Origin: Oryzomicrobium terrae
GTDB lineage: Bacteria; Pseudomonadota; Gammaproteobacteria; Burkholderiales; Rhodocyclaceae
DNA: 64,000 nucleotides
Reading direction: 5' to 3'
NCBI RefSeq assembly: GCF_008274805.1
Contig: NZ_CP022579.1
Location: forward strand, 496,001 to 560,000
Position numbers and translations under genes: made by a program
Shown here: positions 1,426-13,919 of the stretch, piece after piece
How positions within the stretch are numbered: position 1 is the stretch's first letter
Layout: each line of letters opens with the position of its first letter
Notes under the pieces: generated by a model
Seen by the model: the letters and a program-made list of their open reading frames with translations, nothing else
What the model was told of the DNA's origin: nothing
Databases searched by the model: none

Positions 1426-2826
1426 TCATGACTTTGTGTGGGGTGGAAACGTTAGATCAAACCTAGTAAGGCCGTTTTCTGACGCCACCGTGGCATCTCC
1501 CCCATGGGCGTGCATAATCGACTGAGTTATTGCCAACCCTAGGCCTGTTCCATCTCCTGTGCGTTGCCTTGCCGCATCCCCCCGATAGAAGCGATCGAAA
1601 AGGCGGGGGCGTTGCTCGGGAGGAATGGTGGGGCCGGTGTTCTCAACAGATAGCATCACTCCATCCCCCCCCCATTTGATGCGGACTACCACCGTCCCGC
1701 GCTCGGGGGTATGGCGGATAGCGTTGGACAAGAGGTTGCTAACTGCTCTTCTAAGCATCAACGGATCGCCGATGACAATGCCATCCCCTTCGAGGGAAAG
1801 TTCAATATCCTTCTCCTCGGCGAGGATGTTGTAGAACTCCAATAGAGCCTGAACCTCGACTGCCAAATTTACTTCCTTGCTGTTAAGTGAGATCAAGTCG
1901 TTGTCGGATTTCGCTAGAAAAAGCATGTCTCCGATCATGCGTGAGAGGCGCTCTAACTCTTCCGAATTGGATGCAAGCACGTCCTGATATTTATTGAGCG
2001 TCCTAGTCTTGCTCAGCGTTACCTGAGTCTGCGTAAGCAGATTGCTGACAGGGGTGCGGAGCTCGTGAGCAAGATCGGATGAAAAGTCTGAGAGCCGGCG
2101 GAAAGAGCTTTCCAATCGGGCCAGCATGGCATTCAGGGTTTCTGCCACCTCTGCCAGTTCGAGTGGAAAATCATTTGCCGCAAGCCGCTGATTCAGGCGG
2201 TCGGCGGTAATGGCAGCCGCACTACGCCGGATATCCTGAAGGGGGGCCAATCCTCTCCATGCGGCCAGCCAACCCAAAAAGCCGGTAAGCAATGCAGCCA
2301 ACGCCATGACGGTCCAAAGCGTAGTCCGGAATGACTCCATGAAATGCTCATGCATACGCAGCGAGGTGGCTACTACAGCGATGATGGGGGGAGCATCCGC
2401 AATGCTGGTCTGGATATCTGCCGAAATACCCCGGTATGACATGTTCGCCTCATCCACCCACAGGTAGGGCTGTTGGTGTGCACGTTGCTCAGGGGTCAAG
2501 AGTGCATCAGGTAGCATGGTGCCGCTGGTTAGATAGAGCGGTTTCTTCTCCCCTAGGTAGAGAGCCACCTCAAGACCTGAATGCCCATTCAGTACGTCAT
2601 TGAGTTTGTGCGGAAGCTCGTTGAGCTCTTTCTGGGTTTTGATGTCACTTAGCGCATGTTTGAGAAACTCTAATTTCCCCGTAAGGACCTCCGTATCCAT
2701 CTCCTCGAAGTGTTTCTCCACCAGGGTGCCAATGAGCAATCCTAGAAGCAGGAGAACGATCGTTGAGACGGTGGCAAAGAGCAGCGTCAGGCGAAAGGTG
2801 AGAGATTTTGGCGCGAGGAAGATCAC
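1426..2826 (-). CDS. cusS: Heavy-metal sensor histidine kinase (CusS/CopS type)
   Basis: 466 residues, the usual CusS length. TM1 is at about residues 12-35, a periplasmic sensor loop at 36-165, TM2 at 168-190, then a HAMP linker and a HisKA domain with the phosphorylated His in DLAHELRTP (H254). The ATPase domain has the N box ([10 protein letters not shown]) and the G box ([10 protein letters not shown]). It starts with GTG at 2826-2824, overlapping the cusR stop by four bases (GTGA), so the pair is translationally coupled. By family it senses periplasmic Cu(I) or Ag(I) and phosphorylates CusR. The exact metal cannot be read from the sequence. A periplasmic loop with several His and Met residues (around 117-165) is consistent with this. 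Confidence 0.9.
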
Positions 2827-3500
2827 TCGACGCTCTCCAGAACGTAGCCCATGCCGCGCACTGTCCGGATCAGCTTCAGAGGGAAATCGTCATCTACCTT
2901 GGCCCGGAGGCGCCGTACAGCAACCTCGATCACGTTGGTGTCGCTGTCGAAATTCATGTCCCACACCTGGGAGGCGATCAGAGATCGACTTAGTACTTCC
3001 CCCTGCCGGCGCAGCAGCAATTCAAGGAGCGCAAATTCCTTGGCCGTCAGATCGATCTTCTGCCCACCCCGGACCACGCGTCGGCGTATCAAATCCAATT
3101 CCAGATCGGCGGCTTTGAGTATTTCCGCCTCCCTGTTCTTACTCCCACGCCGGAGCAGGGTTCGAACTCGGGCCAGCAGTTCAGAGAAGGCAAAAGGCTT
3201 CACCAAGTAGTCATCAGCACCTAGCTCCAGACCCTTGACCCGGTCGGCGATCTCATCGCGGGCAGTCAGGAACAATACCGGCATTTCCTTGTTTGCACGG
3301 CGGGCCCCTTGCAAGATTTGCCATCCGTCAATCCCAGGCAGCATGACGTCAAGAATGATCAAGTCATACGTCCCCGTCAGCACCAGGTGCAAACCATCAA
3401 GACCGTCACGCGCCAAGTCCACGATAAACCCTGCCTCCACCAGACCTTGGCGGAGATAGTCACCGGTCTTCAACTCGTCTTCGACCACTAGCACTTTCAT
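2823..3500 (-). CDS. cusR: Heavy-metal response regulator (CusR/CopR type)
   Basis: 225 residues, OmpR/PhoB family. The receiver domain (1-120) has acidic residues in VVEDE, the phospho-acceptor D51 in [10 protein letters not shown] and the conserved Lys in DDYLVKPF. The C-terminal winged helix ends in the typical [11 protein letters not shown]. It is transcribed divergently from the cytochrome c gene at 3650, and a symmetric 18-base box lies in the 149-bp gap. Similar boxes occur before the CusF gene and before the small-peptide gene at 13659, so this protein probably controls the whole island. It is the first gene of the cusRS operon. Confidence 0.93.
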
Positions 3501-3649: not shown

Positions 3650-4279
3650 ATGCGGCAGGTGATCGTGGGGATAGTGCTGGGGCTGGGATTGGTATTGGCA
3701 GCGGTTATCGGCGTCGTATGGAGTGGGAGGCTCAACGTGTCAGCGGACGAACCGCACCCATATCCCGTGCTTCGTTTTATTACCTGGGCACGTGAGCGCT
3801 CCATCGCAAAGCATGCTGCCGACATCGTTCTGCCTGAGGATTTGTCGGACCATGAGCGCATACGGCGTGGTGCCGGCAACTATGATGCGATGTGTGTGGA
3901 GTGTCACCTTCGACCGGGGATGGCATCCAGTGAAATCCGTCGGGGTTTATCCCCCCAGCCCCCGGAACTGGGCTCGCTTGCGCAGGTCGCAACTGGTGAT
4001 TCCGGAGTTCAGCGCCAGTTTTGGATCATCAAACACGGCATCGTGGGGTCGGCGATGCCCGCCTGGTCTAAGGGAGGTATTGGTGATGAGTCGATCTGGG
4101 ATCTCGTGGCGTTCCTCAACGCCTTGCCCACACTCAGCCCCTTCCAGTATCGGCAGCTGGTCTCGGCCAGTGATGGGCACACCCACTCAGGTGCAGATGC
4201 GCATCAGCATGCCCCCCTCGCCCCAGAGGACCATGGCCGCCATGACCCCCCCCACCCCAACGCTCATCACGCGCATTAG
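3650..4279 (+). CDS. Membrane-anchored c-type cytochrome with His-rich tail
   Basis: 209 residues. An N-terminal hydrophobic segment (4-24) serves as signal or anchor. The single haem site is CVECH (C82-H86), and M136 in GSAMPAW is the likely distal ligand. The last 35 residues contain about ten His plus Asp/Glu, a plausible periplasmic metal-binding tail. It is the first gene of the plus-strand metal cluster, directly behind the CusR box. Cytochromes are not part of the classical cus/sil operons, so its role here is unknown. Electron transfer linked to copper redox state is only a guess. The haem fold is certain; function is not. Confidence 0.85.
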   Translation: MRQVIVGIVLGLGLVLAAVIGVVWSGRLNVSADEPHPYPVLRFITWARERSIAKHAADIVLPEDLSDHERIRRGAGNYDAMCVECHLRPGMASSEIRRGLSPQPPELGSLAQVATGDSGVQRQFWIIKHGIVGSAMPAWSKGGIGDESIWDLVAFLNALPTLSPFQYRQLVSASDGHTHSGADAHQHAPLAPEDHGRHDPPHPNAHHAH

Positions 4280-4388: not shown

Positions 4389-4724
4389 ATGAAGCGCCTC
4401 TTCGCTACCTCCCTTTTCGCATTGGCGTCGGTCGCCGCATTTAACCCCGCACTTGCAGCTGAGCATGGCGATCACGGGATGATGCACTCCCAAGGTACGG
4501 GACAAACCCTGGCTGACGCCACGGTAAAGAAGGTCGACCAGGCCGCAGGGAAGATCACCTTGTCTCATGGCCCGCTACCCAACGGCATGCCGGCGATGAC
4601 TATGTCGTTCCGTTTGAAAGATCCCTCCTGGGCCAACAAGGTGAAAGAAGGGCAAAAAGTCCGCTTTGCCTCGGCTCAGATCGATGGCGCCATGACGGTT
4701 ACTCGGCTGGAACCCGCTAACTAA
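4389..4724 (+). CDS. cusF: Periplasmic copper/silver chaperone, CusF type
   Basis: 111 residues: a signal peptide cut after AALA (about residue 24), a His/Met-rich linker (EHGDHGMMHS) and the CusF OB-fold. Metal ligands are visible as H60, M70 and M72 (LSHG and MPAMTM). The position of the E. coli capping Trp44 carries M67 in a loop one residue shorter. The start is chosen at the ATG with TGGAG 8 bases upstream and a signal peptide right behind it. By family it hands Cu(I)/Ag(I) to the CusCBA efflux complex encoded next. A CusF domain that keeps the Trp is also fused to CusB downstream. Confidence 0.88.
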   Translation: MKRLFATSLFALASVAAFNPALAAEHGDHGMMHSQGTGQTLADATVKKVDQAAGKITLSHGPLPNGMPAMTMSFRLKDPSWANKVKEGQKVRFASAQIDGAMTVTRLEPAN

Positions 4725-4759
4725 TGTTCCCGCGCTGCCCGGTGATTCAAGGAAGAAAA

Positions 4760-6028
4760 ATGAAAACCACTGTTCGTCCCCTGGCTCTGGCTGTACTGGT
4801 GAGTTTCTGGTGGGCTGCCGCCCAGGCAGAAAGCCAGCCGCCGGGTGCTAGTGTCGATAGCCTGCTGGCCATCGCGAAGGAACAGAACCCTGAATACGCC
4901 GGGTTCCGCTATGAGGCGGAGGCTGCGACAGAGCGAGTGGTACCGGCAGGGGCCTTGCCGGATCCCAAGCTGCGGAGCGAGTTTCGGGATATCACCCGGA
5001 TGGGTGAGCAAAATGCCACGCTTGCACCGACCCGGGTTGGCAGTACCCGGTACCTCCTGATGCAGGATGTCCCCTGGTTCGGTAAGCGCGATCTGAGGCG
5101 GGAAATTGCCGAGCTTGAGGCACAAGGAGCCCAAGGGCGTGCGCTCGGTAGCTGGACGGAAATATCGACTAAGGTCAAAACGCTATACGCCCAGTTGTAC
5201 TACCTCAGCCGCAACGAGCGACTGACTCGGGAAATCCTGGATTTGATGGTCCGTCTGGAGAAAGTAGCCCAGGTTCGATATGCCGGAGGACTTGCGGCCC
5301 AGCAGGATGTCGTCCGGGCTCAGGTCGAACAGACGGGTATGCGCAACGAACTGGTAGCGCTGGCTAGTGAACGCCGCCAGCTTCAAGCTCGCCTAAACGC
5401 CCTACTTGGCCGGCCAGCCATTGCTCCGCTGGCCGAACCGGAGGCTCTGCGCAAGCTTCCCGCACCAGCCAAGCTTGAATACGCCGCTCTGGAAGATCGG
5501 GTAAGGGGGAGGAATCCTTTGCTCTATGCCGCTAATTCGCAGGTCCAGGCGGCTGAAAAATCCCGAGAGTTGACCTACAAGAACCGCTACCCGGACTTCA
5601 CCCTGGGGGTATCGCCCATCCAATATCAGAACGCGGTCAAGGAATGGGAGGTTATGGTCGAACTCAACATCCCCCTGCAGCAATCGTCCCGACGTGCCCA
5701 GGAGCGGGAAGCAGAGGCCATGCTGACCTCGGCCAAGCTGAAACGGGACGCCACTGCCAACCAGGTGCTTGCCGACCTGGCTGAAAACTTATCGGGTATC
5801 GACGCAGCCCGCCAAACGGAAACCCTAGTCAACGACAGCCTGTTGCCACAAGCCCAGCTGACCTATCAAGCCGCACTTGCCGGGTACGAGACCGGGAAAG
5901 TCGATTTCGCCACGCTCCTCGACGCACAGCGACAGATTCGCGTGGCGAAACAGAATCAGATCAAGGCCCAAGCGGACGGCCAAGTCCGCCTGGCAGAAAT
6001 CGAGCGTCTTTTGGGAGAGGGGTTATGA
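4760..6028 (+). CDS. cusC: Outer-membrane efflux channel, TolC/CusC family
   Basis: 422 residues with a signal peptide (to about AAAQA, residue 24) and two OEP repeats with long alpha-helical stretches. QDVPWFGKRD is typical of metal-type TolC proteins. The start at 4760 follows AAGGAAG; an earlier in-frame ATG at 4724 overlaps the cusF stop and lacks a leader. No lipobox is seen, unlike E. coli CusC. It forms the outer-membrane duct of the tripartite pump and overlaps cusB by four bases (ATGA). Confidence 0.9.
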   Translation: MKTTVRPLALAVLVSFWWAAAQAESQPPGASVDSLLAIAKEQNPEYAGFRYEAEAATERVVPAGALPDPKLRSEFRDITRMGEQNATLAPTRVGSTRYLLMQDVPWFGKRDLRREIAELEAQGAQGRALGSWTEISTKVKTLYAQLYYLSRNERLTREILDLMVRLEKVAQVRYAGGLAAQQDVVRAQVEQTGMRNELVALASERRQLQARLNALLGRPAIAPLAEPEALRKLPAPAKLEYAALEDRVRGRNPLLYAANSQVQAAEKSRELTYKNRYPDFTLGVSPIQYQNAVKEWEVMVELNIPLQQSSRRAQEREAEAMLTSAKLKRDATANQVLADLAENLSGIDAARQTETLVNDSLLPQAQLTYQAALAGYETGKVDFATLLDAQRQIRVAKQNQIKAQADGQVRLAEIERLLGEGL

Positions 6029-7632
6029 AGCAAGGGGGCAAGCTGGTTGCCGGCGTGCTTACAGTTGCCGTATTGGCTGCTGCGACCGGCTATTGGGTTG
6101 GTGCACGCAACATGACTGACCACGAAATCGCCGCCGTTGGCCAAGCAGGGGGTGCTGCCGGAGAGTCCAAATCACGCAAGGTCCTCTATTACCGCAATCC
6201 CATGGGACTGCCAGATACCTCGCCTGTGCCGAAAAAAGACCCCATGGGGATGGACTACATCCCGGTCTATGAAGGTGAGCAGGATGAGGAACCCTCTGGT
6301 GCCAACCAGATACGGATCAGTACGGAGAAGATCCAGAAGCTGGGCGTGCGCACCGAGCCGGCGACATTGCGCACCCTGGAACGCTCGATCCGGGCAGCCG
6401 GACGCATCGAGCCGGATGAGCGACGTCTTTATGCCATAACCCCAAAATTCGAAGGTTATGTCGAGCGCCTCCATGTCAGCACGACGGGGCAGCCGGTCGC
6501 CAAAGGCCAGCCCCTGTTCGAGGTCTACAGCCCTGAGCTCGTCTCGGCACAACGGGAATATGCCATTGCCGCGCAAGGCGTTCAGGCGCTGAAGGAGGCA
6601 AGTGCGGAGACGCAGGCCGGAATGAAACAGCTGGCGGAATCGAGCTTGCTACGCCTTCGCAACTGGGATGTCTCGGAAGAGCAGATCAAGGCCCTGAGCA
6701 AATCCGGCGAGGTACGACGGACGCTTACTTTTCGTGCGCCAGTCGGCGGAATCGTGACAGAAAAGAAAGCTGTGCAAGGCATGCGTTTCATGCCGGGCGA
6801 GGCTCTCTATCAGGTCGCCGATCTGTCGTCGGTCTGGGTCGTGGCCGACGTGTTCGAGCAGGATATTGGACAAATCACGCAAGGTGCAAAAGCGAAGGTT
6901 CGGATTAATTCCTATCCGGACAAAACCTTCGAAGGCTCCATCACCTACGTTTATCCCACTCTCAAGGCGGAAACCCGCACAGTACCGGTACGGATTGAGT
7001 TGCCCAACCCGGGCATCCTGCTCAAGCCCGGTATGTTCGCGCAGGTTGAATTGCCGGCTGCTGGCAACTCAGCCAAAACAGCGGTGGTGACAGTCCCACT
7101 CTCTGCCGTGATTGACAGCGGTGTGCGCCAGATCGTCCTGGTTGAAGCCAAGGAAGGGCGTTTTGAACCACGCGAGGTCAAGCTTGGCAATCGTGGTAAC
7201 GATTTTGTCGAGGTTCGCGAAGGCGTTAAGGAAGGGGAGCGCGTTGTCGTTGCCGCCAACTTCCTGATCGATGCAGAAAGCAACCTGAAGGCGGCGGTCG
7301 GCAACTTCGGTCACGCGAGCCATGGCGATGCAGGCAAATCCCAAGGTGCTGCATCAACGGGCCATCACGCTACGGGCACCGTAGAAGAGATCGATATGAA
7401 GGCTGGAACGGCCAGTGTTAGCCACGGTCCGGTCGAGTCGCTCAAGTGGCCAGCCATGACCATGGAGTTCAAAGTGGCCAATGACGCCCTGCTCCAAACG
7501 CTACGTCCTGGCGCAAACATCATCTTCGAGTTTGTCGAGCGGGGGCCAGGCGAATGGGTCATCACCTCAGCCAAGCCGGCAGGCAGCAATACGGTTGGAA
7601 CTGCTCCCGCCTCTGCCCATCGCGGCCACTGA
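6025..7632 (+). CDS. cusB: RND periplasmic adaptor with HMBD and fused CusF domain
   Basis: 535 residues, longer than the roughly 400 of E. coli CusB. An N-terminal anchor (6-26) is followed by a heavy-metal-binding domain at about 52-85 (YYRNPMGLPDTS, KKDPMGMDYIPVY), then the barrel, hairpin and lipoyl parts of a membrane-fusion protein. A His-rich linker (NFGHASHGDAG, TGHHATG) precedes a C-terminal CusF domain at about 451-517. The CusF domain has the full ligand set H467, W475, M478 and M480, at the same spacing as E. coli CusF. It links CusA to CusC and passes metal to the pump. It overlaps the cusC stop (ATGA). Confidence 0.92.
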   Translation: MKQGGKLVAGVLTVAVLAAATGYWVGARNMTDHEIAAVGQAGGAAGESKSRKVLYYRNPMGLPDTSPVPKKDPMGMDYIPVYEGEQDEEPSGANQIRISTEKIQKLGVRTEPATLRTLERSIRAAGRIEPDERRLYAITPKFEGYVERLHVSTTGQPVAKGQPLFEVYSPELVSAQREYAIAAQGVQALKEASAETQAGMKQLAESSLLRLRNWDVSEEQIKALSKSGEVRRTLTFRAPVGGIVTEKKAVQGMRFMPGEALYQVADLSSVWVVADVFEQDIGQITQGAKAKVRINSYPDKTFEGSITYVYPTLKAETRTVPVRIELPNPGILLKPGMFAQVELPAAGNSAKTAVVTVPLSAVIDSGVRQIVLVEAKEGRFEPREVKLGNRGNDFVEVREGVKEGERVVVAANFLIDAESNLKAAVGNFGHASHGDAGKSQGAASTGHHATGTVEEIDMKAGTASVSHGPVESLKWPAMTMEFKVANDALLQTLRPGANIIFEFVERGPGEWVITSAKPAGSNTVGTAPASAHRGH

Positions 7633-7644
7633 CGGGAATCCGCC

Positions 7645-10600
7645 ATGCTTGCCAAAATCATCGACTGGTCCGGGCGGAACCGTTTCCTGGTTCTACTCGC
7701 GGCGCTCTTCATCGTCATCGCAGGCATTGTTGCCGTCCTGCGCACGCCCCTGGATGCCTTGCCTGATCTATCGGACGTCCAGGTCATCGTCTACACGGAG
7801 TATCCAGGCCAGGCGCCCCAGGTGGTAGAGGACCAGGTCACCTATCCCCTGACGACAGCCATGCTGTCGGTACCGAAGTCCAAGGTGGTGCGGGGCTTCT
7901 CCTTCTTTGGCGCCTCCTTTGTCTACATCATTTTCGAGGACGGCACCGATATCTACTGGGCCCGATCCCGGGTGCTCGAGTACCTGAATTTCGCCTCAGG
8001 CCGCATGCCCAAGGGAGTCACACCACAGATTGGTCCCGATGCTACGGGGGTAGGCTGGGTCTACCAGTACGCCCTGCTGGCTAAGGACAAGAATCTGGCT
8101 GAATTGCGTACCCTGCAAGACTGGTACGTCCGCTACCAACTCACCAAAGCGCACGGTGTGGCCGAGGTGGCCTCCATTGGCGGCTTTGTACAGACCTACC
8201 AGGTCACCGTGGATCCGGTGAAATTACGCGCCTATGGCATTCCCCTGGCCAAGGTGACCCAGGTCATTCGCGACTCGAATCGTGACGTTGGCGGACGTGT
8301 CGTTGAAATGGCCGAGACCGAGTACATGGTCCGTGGCAAAGGTTACCTGCGCGGTGCCAGTGACATTGAGAACCTTGTCGTCAAAAGCGATAAGGGCACC
8401 CCCGTCTTGATTCGGGATATCGCTCGGGTTGAACTGGCCCCGGACGAGCGGCGCGGCCTGACCGAACTCAACGGTGAAGGCGAAGTAGTGTCTGGGATCG
8501 CCATGGCGCGCTACGGCCAGAATGCTCTGGAGGTGATCCACAACCTCAAGGAGAAAATCGGTGAAATCTCCTCTGGGTTGCCCGACGGCGTCAGCATCCA
8601 GACGGTCTACGACCGCTCCGACCTTATCCATCGCGCCATCGAGACCCTGAAGCACACTCTGCTTGAGGAAAGCCTGATCGTCGCACTGGTATGCATAGTC
8701 TTCCTGTTGCACGTCCGCAGTGCCCTGGTGGCCATCCTGATGCTCCCGGTGGGCGTGCTGATTGCTTTCATCGCCATGCGCTTGCTGGGCATGAATTCCA
8801 ACCTGATGAGCCTGGGGGGGATCGCCATCGCTATCGGTGCCATGGTCGATGCGGCCATCGTCATGATCGAGAACGCGCACAAGCACCTGGAGCGCCTCAA
8901 GGAGGGGGAGTCACGCACTGAGGCGATGATTTCGGCATGCAAGGAAGTGGGCCCCGCCTTGTTCTTCTCGCTGCTGATCATCACTGTCTCATTCCTGCCG
9001 GTGTTCACCCTGGAATCTCAGGAGGGTCGCCTGTTCTCGCCGCTGGCCTATACCAAGACCTTCGCCATGGCCGGCGCGGCCTTCCTCTCGGTCACCCTGG
9101 TGCCTGTCCTGATGCTGCTGTTCATCCGCGGGCGGATCATGCCGGAGGCCAAGAATCCGGTGAATCGCTTCCTGATCTGGCTGTACCGACCGATCATCGC
9201 CGGGGTGATGCAGTGGAAGAAAACCACCATCGCTGTGGCTGTAGGAATCCTGGCATTGTCGATCTACCCGGCGTCCCGCCTGGGCTCTGAGTTCATGCCG
9301 ACCTTGAATGAGGGCTCGCTCCTTTATATGCCGGCCTCCCTGCCGGGGATGTCGATCACAAAAGCCGCCGAGTTGCTGCAGACTCAGAACAAGCTGATCA
9401 AGAGCTTCCCCGAAGTGGAATCGGTCTACGGCAAGGCTGGACGGGCAAATACCGCCACGGACCCCGCGCCGACGGAGATGTTCGAGACTGTGATCAACCT
9501 GAAGCCGGAATCGGAATGGCGTAAGGGCATGACCACCGACAAGCTCATCGCGGAAATGGACAAAGCGCTCCAATTCCCCGGCGTCTCCAACGCCTGGACC
9601 ATGCCGATCAAAGCGCGGATCGATATGCTGTCCACCGGTATCCGCACACCCATTGGCATCAAGGTGTTCGGTAAAGATCTTGCCGAGATGGAGCGTCTGG
9701 CTAAGGAAATCGAGGCCGTAGTAAAGACGGTCCCGGGGACTAGCTCCGCGTTTGCCGAGCGGATCACCGGTGGGTACTACCTGAACATCGAACCGGACCG
9801 CGAGCAACTGGCCCGCTACGGCCTCGGTGTCGGTGAATTGCAGGACGTGATCGGCACTGCGCTTGGTGGGGAAATGGTCACCACGACGGTCGAAGGCCGG
9901 GAGCGTTTCGGGGTGAATGTTCGCTACCCGCGGGAACTACGCTCCGATCCTCAGCAGATCGCCCGGGAAGTGCTGGTGCCAACACCGGATGGCGCCATGG
10001 TGCCGTTGGGGCAACTGGCGCGAGTCGAGGTTGCCCAGGGCGCCCCCGGCATTCGGACTGAGAATGCCCTGCTTTCCGCTTACATCTACGTAGATATCCG
10101 GGACCGGGATATCGGTAGCTATGTGGCGGAAGCCAGGCGTGTCGTCAATGAACAGGTCAAGTTTCCCGCTGGCTACTACGCGACCTGGAGCGGCCAATTT
10201 GAATCCATGGAGCGCGCCATCGAAAAGATGAAGATCGTGGTGCCGGTCACTCTCTTGATCATCTTCCTGCTCCTCTACCTGAACTTCAAACGCCTCACCG
10301 AAACCCTGATCGTCATGCTGTCGGTGCCCTTCGCCTTGGTTGGCGGTGTCTGGCTGATGTGGCTGCTTGGCTACAACCTGTCAGTGGCTGTCGCCGTGGG
10401 CTTCATCGCCCTGGCGGGGGTTGCCGCCGAAACCGGTGTGGTGATGCTGATCTACCTGGACCACGCCTGGGAAGGGATCAAGGAGCGGAGCCGTCTGGCT
10501 GGCCGCACACCAAGTGTTGCCGATCTCTACGAGGCTGTTATGGAAGGTGCCGTGGAGCGGGTCCGCCCTAAGATGATGACGGTGGTCGCCATCATGGCAG

Positions 10601-10770
10601 GCTTGCTTCCGATCATGTGGAGCACCGGCACGGGATCCGAGGTCATGAGCCGCATTGCAGCCCCCATGGTTGGGGGGATGATTTCCTCCACGGTACTGAC
10701 CCTGGCCGTAATTCCTGCGTTGTATGCCCTCATTAAGCAGTGGCGCCTGAATCGAGGTATTGAGCAATGA
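7645..10770 (+). CDS. cusA: Heavy-metal RND efflux pump, CusA/SilA type
   Basis: 1041 residues, full length for HME-RND pumps: 12 predicted TM helices and two large periplasmic loops. The TM4 motif GAMVDAAIVMIENAHK (about residues 400-415) is the monovalent-metal (Cu/Ag, HME4) version. Zn/Co pumps of the CzcA type carry an acidic DFG..DGA motif instead. Met residues in the porter region (for example FMPTLNEGSLLYMP) fit a methionine relay. It is the proton-driven inner-membrane part of the CusCBA complex. It starts 12 bases after cusB and overlaps the next cytochrome gene by four bases. Confidence 0.95.
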   Translation: MLAKIIDWSGRNRFLVLLAALFIVIAGIVAVLRTPLDALPDLSDVQVIVYTEYPGQAPQVVEDQVTYPLTTAMLSVPKSKVVRGFSFFGASFVYIIFEDGTDIYWARSRVLEYLNFASGRMPKGVTPQIGPDATGVGWVYQYALLAKDKNLAELRTLQDWYVRYQLTKAHGVAEVASIGGFVQTYQVTVDPVKLRAYGIPLAKVTQVIRDSNRDVGGRVVEMAETEYMVRGKGYLRGASDIENLVVKSDKGTPVLIRDIARVELAPDERRGLTELNGEGEVVSGIAMARYGQNALEVIHNLKEKIGEISSGLPDGVSIQTVYDRSDLIHRAIETLKHTLLEESLIVALVCIVFLLHVRSALVAILMLPVGVLIAFIAMRLLGMNSNLMSLGGIAIAIGAMVDAAIVMIENAHKHLERLKEGESRTEAMISACKEVGPALFFSLLIITVSFLPVFTLESQEGRLFSPLAYTKTFAMAGAAFLSVTLVPVLMLLFIRGRIMPEAKNPVNRFLIWLYRPIIAGVMQWKKTTIAVAVGILALSIYPASRLGSEFMPTLNEGSLLYMPASLPGMSITKAAELLQTQNKLIKSFPEVESVYGKAGRANTATDPAPTEMFETVINLKPESEWRKGMTTDKLIAEMDKALQFPGVSNAWTMPIKARIDMLSTGIRTPIGIKVFGKDLAEMERLAKEIEAVVKTVPGTSSAFAERITGGYYLNIEPDREQLARYGLGVGELQDVIGTALGGEMVTTTVEGRERFGVNVRYPRELRSDPQQIAREVLVPTPDGAMVPLGQLARVEVAQGAPGIRTENALLSAYIYVDIRDRDIGSYVAEARRVVNEQVKFPAGYYATWSGQFESMERAIEKMKIVVPVTLLIIFLLLYLNFKRLTETLIVMLSVPFALVGGVWLMWLLGYNLSVAVAVGFIALAGVAAETGVVMLIYLDHAWEGIKERSRLAGRTPSVADLYEAVMEGAVERVRPKMMTVVAIMAGLLPIMWSTGTGSEVMSRIAAPMVGGMISSTVLTLAVIPALYALIKQWRLNRGIEQ

Positions 10771-11174
10771 CACAGCAACAACATTCCCTCCGCCGGCTAC
10801 GCTGGTTCAGGCTCGGCCTCCTTCTGATGGCGATGCTGGGACAAGGGGCCTGGGCGCAGTCGTATGCCGTGCCCAAACCTAGCCCAGGATTGATGCCGAA
10901 CCCCGGAGTGGGGAAAGGGCTTTATGGAAAATTCTGCGCCAGTTGCCATGGCGTCGATTTGCAGGGATCCGCCAAGGGCCCACCGTTTCTGCACAAGATC
11001 TACGAGCCCGCGCACCACGGCGATGCAGCGTTCCAACTGGCGGCGAAGAATGGGGTCCGTGCCCATCACTGGACATTTGGTGACATGGCGCCGATCCCTC
11101 TAGTTTCTCCAGATGAGGTGGCCCATATCACCGCCTATGTTCGCGTGGAGCAACGCAAGGTAGGTATCCAGTAA
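10767..11174 (+). CDS. Periplasmic c-type cytochrome
   Basis: 135 residues: a signal peptide ending GAWA (residue 30), one haem site CASCH (57-61) and a likely distal ligand M107 in FGDMAPIP. A HH pair at 83-84 and another at 100-101 are exposed metal-ligand candidates. The fold is a short class I cytochrome c (cytochrome_CBB3/c-type domain). ATGA coupling to cusA and a 9-base gap to the ATPase gene place it inside the efflux operon. Its job is unknown. It is the second cytochrome in this cluster and is unrelated to the first outside the haem site. Confidence 0.87.
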   Translation: MTQQQHSLRRLRWFRLGLLLMAMLGQGAWAQSYAVPKPSPGLMPNPGVGKGLYGKFCASCHGVDLQGSAKGPPFLHKIYEPAHHGDAAFQLAAKNGVRAHHWTFGDMAPIPLVSPDEVAHITAYVRVEQRKVGIQ

Positions 11175-11183
11175 GGAGCAGTC

Positions 11184-13511
11184 ATGAGCGCAGACCATGT
11201 ACACCACGAGGGGCGGCATCATTCACCCCTTCCGTCGAAAGCGGTGATTGATCCGGTTTGCGGCATGACGGTGAAGCCGGAATCGCCTCATGAGTCCTGG
11301 TTGGACGGCACGTTGCACCGCTTCTGCAGCAGCAAGTGCAAGGGTAAGTTCGATGCGGACCCCGGGCATTATCTCCACCCGGTGCCGGATGTGGCGGTAG
11401 AGAATCTTCCGGCAGGAACCGAGTACGTCTGTCCGATGCACCCGGAGGTCCGCCAGCCGGGACCGGGCACTTGCCCGAAGTGCGGTATGACCTTAGAGCC
11501 AGTCCTTCCCAACCTTGAGGAAGGAGAAGACAACGCCGAATACCATGACTTCCGTCGGCGCTTCTGGGCCACCTTGCCCCTGTCCATCATCGTGGTGGCG
11601 CTCGCAATGGCCGGGCACCGCCTCGAAATGCTCCCGGTCACCCTAAGGACCTGGGCAGAACTGATCCTCAGCCTCCCCATTGTCCTCTGGGCAGGTAACC
11701 CATTCTTCGTCCGTGGTTGGCAGTCCGTTGTTCAGCGCAGCCCAAACATGTGGACCTTGATTGGCCTGGGGACCGGCGCCGCCTTCCTCTACAGCGTGGT
11801 GGCCACCTTTGCTCCGGGCATTTTCCCAGAATCATTCCGTGCCCATGGCCGGATTGGCGTTTATTTCGAAGCAGCCGCGGTAATCATCTCCCTCACCCTG
11901 CTGGGCCAGATGCTGGAATTGCGAGCTCGCTCGCAGACCTCTGCGGCCATCAAGTCCTTGCTCGGCCTCGCGCCGAAGACGGCGCGGCGGATCAATTCTG
12001 ATGGCGGAGAAGAAGACATCCCGCTCACGCATGTTCATGTTGGGGATCTCCTGCGTATCCGTCCCGGGGAGAAGGTGCCGGTGGATGGGGTAGTTACCGA
12101 AGGCTCCAGCGCCATTGACGAATCGATGCTGACGGGGGAGCCTCTGCCGGTCACCAAACGCCCAGGGGACAAGGTTATCGGCGCCACCATCAACACCTCG
12201 GGCAGCCTGGTGATGCGCTCGGAAAAAATCGGCGCCCAAACCATGCTGGCCCAGATTGTCCAGATGGTCGCCCAGGCCCAGCGTTCCAAGGCTCCCATGC
12301 AGCGCCTGGCCGACGTGGTGGCGGGCTACTTTGTCGTGGTGGTGGTACTGATCGCCCTAGCGAGCTTCTTGGCCTGGGGGTTGTTGGGCGGTCCGCAGGG
12401 CTGGGTGTTCGGCCTGATCAACGGGGTGGCCGTGCTGATCATCGCCTGTCCCTGCGCCTTGGGGTTGGCCACTCCTATGTCGATCATGGTGTCCACGGGC
12501 AAAGCCGCCACCCAGGGGGTACTGTTTCGTGACGCCGCCGCCATCGAGCGTCTGCGTGACATCGACACCCTGATCGTGGACAAGACCGGCACCTTGACCG
12601 AAGGGCGCCCTGCCTTCCAGACCGCCATCCCAGTCCCGGGCATCGACCGGGACGAGGTACTCCGCCTTGCTGCCAGTCTGGATCAAGGCAGTGAGCATCC
12701 CCTGGCCGATGCCATCGTGCGAGCGGCACGAGGGCAAGGGCTCGCCCTCGACAAGGTCGAGGGATTCGAGTCTGCGACAGGAATTGGTGTCCGAGGGGTG
12801 GTTGCTGGAAAGCGCTTGGCTCTAGGGAATGGTGCCTTGATGGCACAGGACGGCGTGGTGGTCGAATCGTTGCGGGACGAGGCGGAAACCCTTCGGCGCT
12901 CGGGTGCGAGCGTCATGCACCTGGCCGCCGACGGTGTGCTGATGGGGTTGCTTGCCGTTGCTGACCCGGTCAAGTCCAGCACGCCGGAGGCGCTGGCCGT
13001 CTTGCGCCAGAGCGGCCTGCGGGTCGTCATGGCAACGGGAGACGGCCTTACCACCGCCCGCGCCGTCGGCGATCAATTGGGCATTGACGAGGTTCACGGC
13101 GAAGTGAAGCCTGCAGACAAGCTGGCGCTGGTTGAGCGCCTCCAGGCAGAGGGCCGGGTGGTGGCGATGGCCGGTGATGGCATCAACGACGCTCCGGCCT
13201 TGGCCAAGGCTGATGTTGGGATTGCAATGGGAACCGGGACAGATGTGGCGATGAACAGCGCCCAGGTCACCCTGGTGAAGGGGGATTTGCGCGGCATCGC
13301 TCGGGCACGCCAACTGTCGACGGCGACAGTGCGCAACATGCGACAAAACCTGGCATTCGCCTTTCTCTATAACGCACTGGGGGTGCCAATCGCGGCGGGC
13401 ATCCTGTACCCCTCATTCGGTTTGGTGCTTTCTCCCATTATCGCCGCCGCTGCGATGAGCCTTTCTTCGGTGAGTGTCGTGGGAAACGCGTTACGTCTGC
13501 GAGGTGTCTGA
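11184..13511 (+). CDS. copA: Copper/silver P1B-type ATPase with YHS and HMBD domains
   Basis: 775 residues. The N-terminus has no CxxC HMA domain. It carries a YHS domain (about 19-66: [10 protein letters not shown] and [13 protein letters not shown]) and a heavy-metal-binding domain (80-106: [10 protein letters not shown] and [12 protein letters not shown]). Then come the membrane helices, the actuator loop (LTGEP), the CPC ion site in [13 protein letters not shown] (about residue 420), DKTGT (about 466), the HP site in SEHPLADA and [10 protein letters not shown]. This layout is that of SilP/CopB-like pumps, and export of Cu(I)/Ag(I) from the cytoplasm is expected. It follows AAGGAG and is the last gene of the cusF-C-B-A unit. 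Confidence 0.93.
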
Positions 13512-13658: not shown

Positions 13659-13919
13659 ATGAAACTGTCTGCTACCCTCGCCACTGCTGCCTTTCTTGCT
13701 ACCTCTGCCATCGCCTTGGGGGCGCACGCCGCCGAAGGCGACAAACCCATGGGAGCCGACGCGCCCATGATGTCTCCAGACAAGGGAATGGACATGAAGC
13801 ACCACTCCCATGTCGAAGATAAGACGGGTGTGCCGCAGAAGCCGGTCCCCAAACCTGAGGAGCAAAAGCGCAAGACGCCGGCGAAAGACAAGCACTACCA
13901 CCCGCGCGACGGCAAGTAA
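13659..13919 (+). CDS. Small secreted Met/His-rich protein
   Basis: 86 residues: a signal peptide to about residue 24 (GAHA), then a mature part of about 62 residues with clustered Met and His (MGADAPMMSPDKGMDMKHHSH) and a basic Pro/Lys tail. There is no fold to predict and the protein is probably disordered. Soft Met and His ligands suggest binding of Cu or Ag in the periplasm, comparable in role (not in sequence) to SilE/PcoE. It is preceded by a CusR-like box and is the first gene of the 13.6-14.9 kb group. Confidence 0.75.
   Translation: MKLSATLATAAFLATSAIALGAHAAEGDKPMGADAPMMSPDKGMDMKHHSHVEDKTGVPQKPVPKPEEQKRKTPAKDKHYHPRDGK

What the first reader, a model, noticed from the sequence alone, without database searches (positions are those of the whole stretch)
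4389..7632. Two CusF domains with different metal sites: free one lacks the capping Trp, fused one keeps it
The free CusF has Met (M67) where E. coli CusF has Trp44, in a shorter loop. The C-terminal domain of CusB has H, W, M, M at exact E. coli spacing. Trp44 limits Cu(I) access and oxidation, so the two domains may differ in affinity and form a relay from free chaperone to pump-bound domain.
Basis: partly seen in the sequence, partly recalled or inferred. Interest (0 to 1): 0.52.

Follow-up and report, generated by a model that had tools for sequence, protein, structure and literature searches.

The report
Met-capped and Trp-capped CusF copper domains
This copper-efflux operon carries a small free copper carrier whose metal site is capped by methionine and a second copy of the same domain, fused to the pump, capped by tryptophan; the contrast is real and common in related bacteria, but both site types were already known and nothing yet shows that metal passes between them.

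Summary
The free CusF (window 4389-4724) has H60, M67, M70, M72, with Met at the E. coli Trp44 position and a loop one residue shorter. The C-terminal domain of CusB (6025-7632) has H467, W475, M478, M480 at exact E. coli spacing. No aromatic residue lies between H60 and M70.

It is not special to this operon. Of 376 CusF domains, free ones are Met-capped 162, Trp-capped 45, other 4; fused ones Trp-capped 148, Met-capped 9, other 8. In a tree built without the cap column, one clade holds 146 of 167 Met-capped rows, no Trp-capped row and no fused row. So the contrast reflects two old subfamilies.

Both motifs, HWMM and HMMM, were already in print (PMC5552934, citing Kim et al. 2010), and CusB with a C-terminal CusF domain is known from SilB. 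The relay is untested. Its affinity argument may run backwards: a review states that Trp44-to-Met raises E. coli CusF's Cu(I) affinity. Charge complementarity failed its control. Cupriavidus metallidurans CH34 carries the same pair, so the idea can be tested there.

The parts
4389..4724 (+). Free periplasmic CusF, Met-capped (HMMM) type; 111 aa with a probable Sec signal peptide (about residues 1-24, by eye)
   Evidence: PF11604 85.5 bits; residues and coordinates; AlphaFold2 mean pLDDT 95.0 for the domain, nearest PDB folds are SilF and CusF
4566..4604 (+). Metal-site segment of the free protein: H60 ... M67 (cap) ... M70-T-M72, loop one residue short
   Evidence: spacing census
4724..6028 (+). 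CusC-type outer-membrane factor (mechanical start; the true start may lie at 4760)
   Evidence: PF02321 OEP, 132.6 bits
6025..7632 (+). CusB adaptor with a C-terminal CusF domain
   Evidence: PF16576 276.5 bits and PF11604 86 bits at residues 447-517
6202..6252 (+). N-terminal segment of CusB holding M60, M74, M76, in the arrangement recalled for the E. coli CusB Met triad
   Evidence: Met positions read; the match to the E. coli triad is from recall, not from a call
7354..7590 (+). Fused CusF domain, Trp-capped (HWMM) type: H467, W475, M478, M480
   Evidence: AlphaFold2 mean pLDDT 94.9; matches CusF, SilF and SilB 2L55 folds
7645..10770 (+). CusA RND pump
   Evidence: ORF 1041 aa; position in the operon and resemblance across loci; not scanned against Pfam here
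11184..13511 (+). P-type metal ATPase with YHS and HMBD domains, a possible Cu(I) source for the free CusF
   Evidence: PF00122, PF04945, PF19335; role inferred
1426..3500 (-). Divergent two-component system (sensor 1426-2826, regulator 2823-3500)
   Evidence: ORFs; resemblance to heavy-metal sensor/regulator pairs beside related operons

Best explanation
The free protein is a Met-capped (HMMM) CusF and the CusB tail is a Trp-capped (HWMM) CusF domain of the SilB kind. Shown here: their ligand residues, their folds by prediction, and that they belong to two different parts of the CusF family. One part is a clade of free Met-capped proteins that is never fused; the other is a Trp-capped part that occurs both free and fused. 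Inferred: both serve one Cu(I)/Ag(I) efflux pump. The free carrier takes Cu(I) in the periplasm, perhaps from the P-type ATPase encoded at 11184-13511, holds it with His and up to three Met sulphurs, and gives it to CusB. The fused Trp-capped domain is a pump-bound holding or gating site. The difference between the two sites was inherited with the two subfamilies and was not tuned inside this operon. The free site is predicted to bind Cu(I) at least as tightly as the fused one, so export by CusA, not a simple affinity gradient from free to fused, would have to pull the metal outward. Whether metal goes directly from free to fused domain, or to the N-terminal Met sites of CusB first, is not decided.
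For: Family membership. Cap census, free M 162 / W 45 / other 4 and fused W 148 / M 9 / other 8 of 376. Complete class listing: free M 17, W 17; fused W 47, M 6, other 4, out of 91 domains in 63 of 274 genomes. Family sample: free M 68, W 7, other 2; fused W 61, M 2, out of 140 domains. The cap changes 9 times on the tree against about 119 in shuffles, and one clade has 146 M, 0 W, 0 fused, support 90. Operon pairs: M free with W fused in 71 of 93. SilB C-terminal domain 2L55 is Trp-capped. Met at the cap raises E. coli CusF affinity according to PMC7558416.
Against: No metal binding, transfer or structure with metal was examined. The tree rests on 68 short columns (FastTree), and 21 of 167 Met-capped rows, 8 of them fused, fall outside the main clade, so the Met cap arose or was kept more than once. 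The short loop could change the geometry so that the E. coli W44M result does not carry over. W81 or another group might cap the free site; predicted coordinates could not be inspected.
Confidence: 0.6

Rival explanations
1. One reading: the free Met-capped chaperone collects Cu(I) and hands it directly to the Trp-capped domain on CusB, driven by different affinities.
For: The Met/Trp pairing in one operon is the commonest arrangement (71 of 93 pairs). Opposite net charge of the two domains in the window (+4, -4) and free more positive in 66 of 71 M/W pairs. CusF-to-CusB transfer with shared ligands is shown for E. coli, to the CusB N-terminus (PMC6235853 passages).
Against: Fused domains are more acidic still in genomes without any free CusF. 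The window CusB also has the N-terminal Met residues that serve as acceptor in E. coli. The reported effect of Trp-to-Met is a tighter site (PMC7558416). Trp/Trp pairs occur in 18 of 93.
Confidence: 0.2
2. The cap difference has no functional consequence: Met and Trp are interchangeable caps, and the pattern is only shared descent.
For: Cap state follows the tree closely and gives only one supported independent contrast. Both cap states occur in free proteins beside the same pump genes.
Against: The cap column is otherwise nearly fixed to two residues (M or W in 364 of 376), other positions change with it (E. coli 41, 50, 72), and mutating it changes affinity in E. coli (PMC7558416).
Confidence: 0.2
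3. Met-capped CusFs are made for open exchange with partners other than the pump, above all periplasmic multicopper oxidases; the window's copy is one that works beside a Cus pump.
For: Pfam Cu-oxidase within 2.5 kb: 5 of 17 Met-capped against 0 of 17 Trp-capped free CusFs in the class sample, Fisher p = 0.044; 19 of 26 Met-capped in 25 further genomes; 0 of 27 Trp-capped in another 25. Annotated operons TolC - copper oxidase - CusF - CopC in Burkholderia multivorans pTGL1 and Paraburkholderia fungorum pBIL, both Met-capped.
Against: The window's own genome has no Cu-oxidase_3 match. Within 5 kb Trp-capped free CusFs reach 3 of 17 and 2 of 27. The 25 Met-capped genomes came from a score-ranked, truncated list, so 19 of 26 is biased. 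Shared descent accounts for the contrast.
Confidence: 0.2

Closest known systems
E. coli CusF / Salmonella SilF (free, HWMM)
   Same: Same Pfam family and fold; His and two Met ligands; soluble periplasmic protein in a Cus/Sil operon
   Different: The window's free protein has Met instead of Trp at the cap and a loop one residue shorter
HMMM-type CusF homologues (Kim, Rensing and McEvoy 2010, known here only through PMC5552934)
   Same: Met at the cap position; this is the type the free protein belongs to
   Different: The short-loop form is a minority: 27 of 162 free Met-capped domains
SilB of Cupriavidus metallidurans, C-terminal domain (PDB 2L55; Bersch et al. 2011, known through PMC4446572)
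   Same: CusF domain at the C-terminus of the CusB-type adaptor, Trp-capped
   Different: The window's operon also has a free Met-capped CusF upstream of CusC
cus cluster on the CH34 megaplasmid of C. metallidurans (NC_007974.2)
   Same: Trp-capped domain on CusB plus free Met-capped CusF in one cluster
   Different: There the free gene follows CusA and its loop has the usual length

Membership tests
CusF_Ec (PF11604) | Score over the family cut-off of 27 bits | tested here: met
   85.5 and 86 bits
CusF_Ec (PF11604) | His and two Met ligands (E. coli H36, M47, M49) | tested here: met
   Free H60, M70, M72; fused H467, M478, M480
Trp-capped (HWMM) CusF, free protein | Trp at E. coli position 44 | tested here: not met
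   M67
Trp-capped (HWMM) CusF, fused domain | Trp at E. coli position 44 with E. coli spacing | tested here: met
   W475, spacings 8, 11, 13
Met-capped (HMMM) CusF, free protein | Met at E. coli position 44; place among Met-capped relatives in the tree | tested here: met
   M67; nested with Met-capped rows at successive nodes
SilB-type CusB | CusB adaptor domains followed by a CusF domain in one reading frame | tested here: met
   PF16576 at 118-339 and PF11604 at 447-517 of one 535-aa protein
Functional Cu(I)/Ag(I) chaperone | Binds Cu(I) and transfers it to a partner | not testable with these tools
   Needs purified protein
Oxidase-linked CusF | Multicopper oxidase gene next to it | tested here: not met
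   No Cu-oxidase_3 match in the window's genome

The most novel reading that the evidence does not exclude
CusF is two functional families. Trp-capped domains are closed, oxidation-shielded sites dedicated to the efflux pump, which is why only they are commonly built into CusB. Met-capped proteins are open, freely exchanging Cu(I) carriers that always stay soluble in their main clade and feed either multicopper oxidases or pumps. Operons such as this one carry one of each on purpose: an open collector and a closed pump-bound site.
Probability: 0.2. Interest if true: 0.6.

Novelty: new member of a known kind. Interest (0 to 1): 0.36.

Why it matters
The role of the CusF capping Trp is described in the literature as not fully understood (PMC6235853, PMC7558416), and one paper calls the four site residues of SilF strictly conserved (PMC10656224). 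Free CusFs with Met at that place are the majority in this census, and many bacteria carry one site of each type, often in one operon (71 of 93 pairs). That gives natural pairs for testing what the cap does. It also bears on a statement that the E. coli copper site is absent from the C. metallidurans CusF (PMC10304878): in the CH34 sequence read here the His and both Met are present and only the Trp is replaced by Met.

Tried and rejected
Charge complementarity as evidence of docking between free and fused domain: striking at first, rejected by the control that fused domains are more acidic in genomes lacking a free CusF.

Multicopper-oxidase linkage: the first measurement used one oxidase from a Met-capped operon as query and gave 61 of 162 against 0 of 45. 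One of eight proteins in a Pfam scan, L204:1-396, counted as oxidase at 135 bits, had no Pfam match. A whole-genome search with Pfam PF07732 then showed that some Trp-capped free CusFs also have an oxidase 3.6-4.0 kb away. I kept only the weaker, Pfam-based statement.

Gene order as the predictor of the cap: upstream of fused CusB, M 62, W 8, L 1; downstream, W 12, M 7; opposite strand, M 3. A tendency, not a rule.

Fusion of CusF to other proteins: 24 rows called free lie far inside long stop-to-stop frames. I scanned 10 of the 24 with Pfam and all 10 showed only the CusF domain, so these look like read-through of the frame upstream of the true start. The other 14 were not scanned.

A second aromatic replacing the Trp: Trp at E. 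coli position 58 (window W81) occurs in 39 of 162 Met-capped free domains, 0 of 45 Trp-capped free and 1 of 148 Trp-capped fused. Aromatic residues inside the loop itself: 7 of 162.

Independent-contrast test of cap against oxidase neighbour or fusion: only one supported pair, no power.

Limits of the counts: the match listings were truncated by score; only those were complete. Of the 150 matches in the genome table, not all were fetched (140 domains from that sample). Some named loci are the same contigs as unnamed ones (L032 and G1060:C8 have equal contig length, L034 and G1028:C81 likewise), so a few domains are counted twice in the total of 376; the class and family counts are not affected.
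Full report
What was claimed and what is there. Both statements are right. The free protein (4389-4724) and the end of CusB (6025-7632) each match Pfam CusF_Ec well above its cut-off, and the window's 3.5-Mb genome has no third copy. The free site is H60-x6-M67-x2-M70-x-M72; the fused one is H467-x7-W475-x2-M478-x-M480. E. coli has the fused spacing. The nearest named relative of the free gene found in the genome collection is a stretch with 100% protein identity in an Oryzomicrobium MAG.

Structure. AlphaFold2 models of both domains, made with 41-row alignments of relatives, have mean pLDDT 95.0 and 94.9. Foldseek finds SilF, CusF and, for the fused domain with E = 6e-5, the SilB C-terminal domain 2L55. 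For the free model 2L55 is further down (E = 0.0045).

Surroundings. The order is sensor and regulator (minus strand), a c-type cytochrome, free CusF, CusC, CusB with CusF domain, CusA, a second c-type cytochrome, and a P-type ATPase with YHS and HMBD domains. CusB also carries M60, M74 and M76 near its N-terminus; from recall these match the E. coli Met triad that accepts Cu(I) from CusF. So this pump has at least two candidate acceptor sites on CusB.

How general it is. I searched for PF11604 in 274 genomes of the class (91 places, all listed, 63 genomes), 399 of the order and 398 of the phylum (listings truncated) and 101 of the family (150 matches, 70 genomes), fetched stretches, and read the cap residue from a profile alignment. 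Of 376 domains, free ones have Met 162, Trp 45, other 4, and fused ones Trp 148, Met 9, other 8. In the fully listed class sample: free Met 17, Trp 17; fused Trp 47, Met 6, other 4, Fisher p = 1.2e-4 for M/W against free/fused. In the family sample: free Met 68, Trp 7, other 2; fused Trp 61, Met 2. Of 93 free proteins within 12 kb of a fused domain, the free/fused caps are M/W 71, W/W 18, W/M 2, M/M 1, L/W 1. So the window shows the usual state for its family. Exceptions exist in every direction.

Origin of the contrast. A FastTree tree of 367 rows built without the cap column needs 9 changes of cap against a mean of 119 in shuffles, and 15 changes between free and fused. One clade (support 90) holds 146 Met-capped rows, no Trp-capped row and no fused row; the remaining 21 Met-capped rows, 8 of them fused, lie outside it. 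Because the cap follows descent, only one well-supported independent contrast remains, and p-values that treat rows as independent overstate the case. Other positions change with the cap: E. coli 41 (Asn against Ser/Ala), 50 (Val/Ser against Asp/Glu), 72 (Ala against Phe/Leu) and 58, where Trp occurs in 39 of 162 Met-capped free domains, 0 of 45 Trp-capped free and 1 of 148 Trp-capped fused domains. The one-residue-short loop occurs in 27 free Met-capped domains only; in the clade of 28 (support 88) around the window's protein it occurs in 16.

Is a relay supported? Transfer between CusF and the CusB N-terminus is established for E. coli (passages of PMC6235853). For the fused domain I found no transfer data in the held library. 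The review PMC7558416 states that replacing the E. coli Trp by Met increases Cu(I) affinity (passage). If that holds here, the free protein is the tighter site and an affinity gradient from free to fused is not expected. Net charge looked favourable for docking but failed its control. The relay stays possible and untested.

Other partners of the Met-capped type. Counted with Pfam PF07732 on whole genomes, a multicopper oxidase lies within 2.5 kb of 5 of 17 Met-capped and 0 of 17 Trp-capped free CusFs in the class sample; of 26 Met-capped in 25 further genomes, 19; of 27 Trp-capped in another 25 genomes, 0. Those other 25 genomes also hold 5 Met-capped free CusFs, 1 of them within 2.5 kb. Within 5 kb Trp-capped ones reach 3 of 17 and 2 of 27. 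The 25 Met-capped genomes were 25 of the 47 listed and came from a score-ranked search list, so that fraction is not representative. Annotated examples are the TolC - copper oxidase - CusF - CopC operons of B. multivorans pTGL1 and P. fungorum pBIL, both Met-capped. The window's genome has no such oxidase. PMC6769254 notes that cusF occurs in beta-proteobacteria without heavy-metal RND pumps and must have another role there (passage), which fits a wider role for free CusFs.

What is known already. PMC5552934 reports that HWMM and HMMM motifs were used to search for CusF proteins by Kim et al. 2010, and that rhizobial CusFs keep H36, M47 and M49 (passages). The C-terminal CusF domain of an adaptor is known from SilB (passages of PMC4446572), and its sequence in 2L55 is Trp-capped. 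I found no statement that fused domains are nearly always Trp-capped while a Met-capped clade is never fused, in these searches of the held open-access library. Kim et al. 2010 was not read; whether it was held was not looked up. Loftin et al. 2009 and Bersch et al. 2011 were not held. So the association may be in print elsewhere. PMC10304878 says that the E. coli copper site is not present in the C. metallidurans CusF (passage). On the CH34 megaplasmid I read a free CusF with His, Met, Met, Met in the CusF pattern beside a CusB-fused Trp-capped domain; I take it to be that cus cluster from its gene order, as the record carries no annotation there. All papers named here were seen as passages found by search terms, not as whole texts.

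Verdict. A correct and well-read observation of a common, inherited difference between two known CusF types. The proposed relay is unproven, and its affinity argument is probably the wrong way round. Worth a modest score because the pairs are natural experiments on the unsettled role of the capping Trp.

Noticed in passing
L093, L110, L102, L106, L131, L145 (CusB C-termini in other genomes): Some CusB proteins end in two CusF domains in tandem; in these six the second domain has lost ligands (Arg for His, Ala for the first Met, Arg or Lys at the cap) while the first is intact.
   Followed up: partly
window 4629-4631 (W81 of the free CusF): A Trp in the short helix after strand 3 occurs almost only together with the Met cap (39 of 162 against 1 of 193 Trp-capped domains); it could be a relocated aromatic cap or a packing residue.
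   Followed up: partly
window 3650-4279 and 10767-11174: Two c-type cytochrome genes bracket the efflux operon; a relative of the first also lies upstream of CusF in L032.
   Followed up: no
window 13659-13919: Small His- and Met-rich predicted exported protein without a Pfam match downstream of the P-type ATPase.
   Followed up: no
L281 and L282 (plasmids pTGL1 and pBIL): Operon of TolC, copper oxidase, Met-capped CusF and CopC (CopD also follows in L281) behind a heavy-metal two-component system, on plasmids.
   Followed up: partly
L144 (G026:C3): Three free Trp-capped CusF domains in one stretch, about 3.4 and 1.2 kb apart.
   Followed up: no
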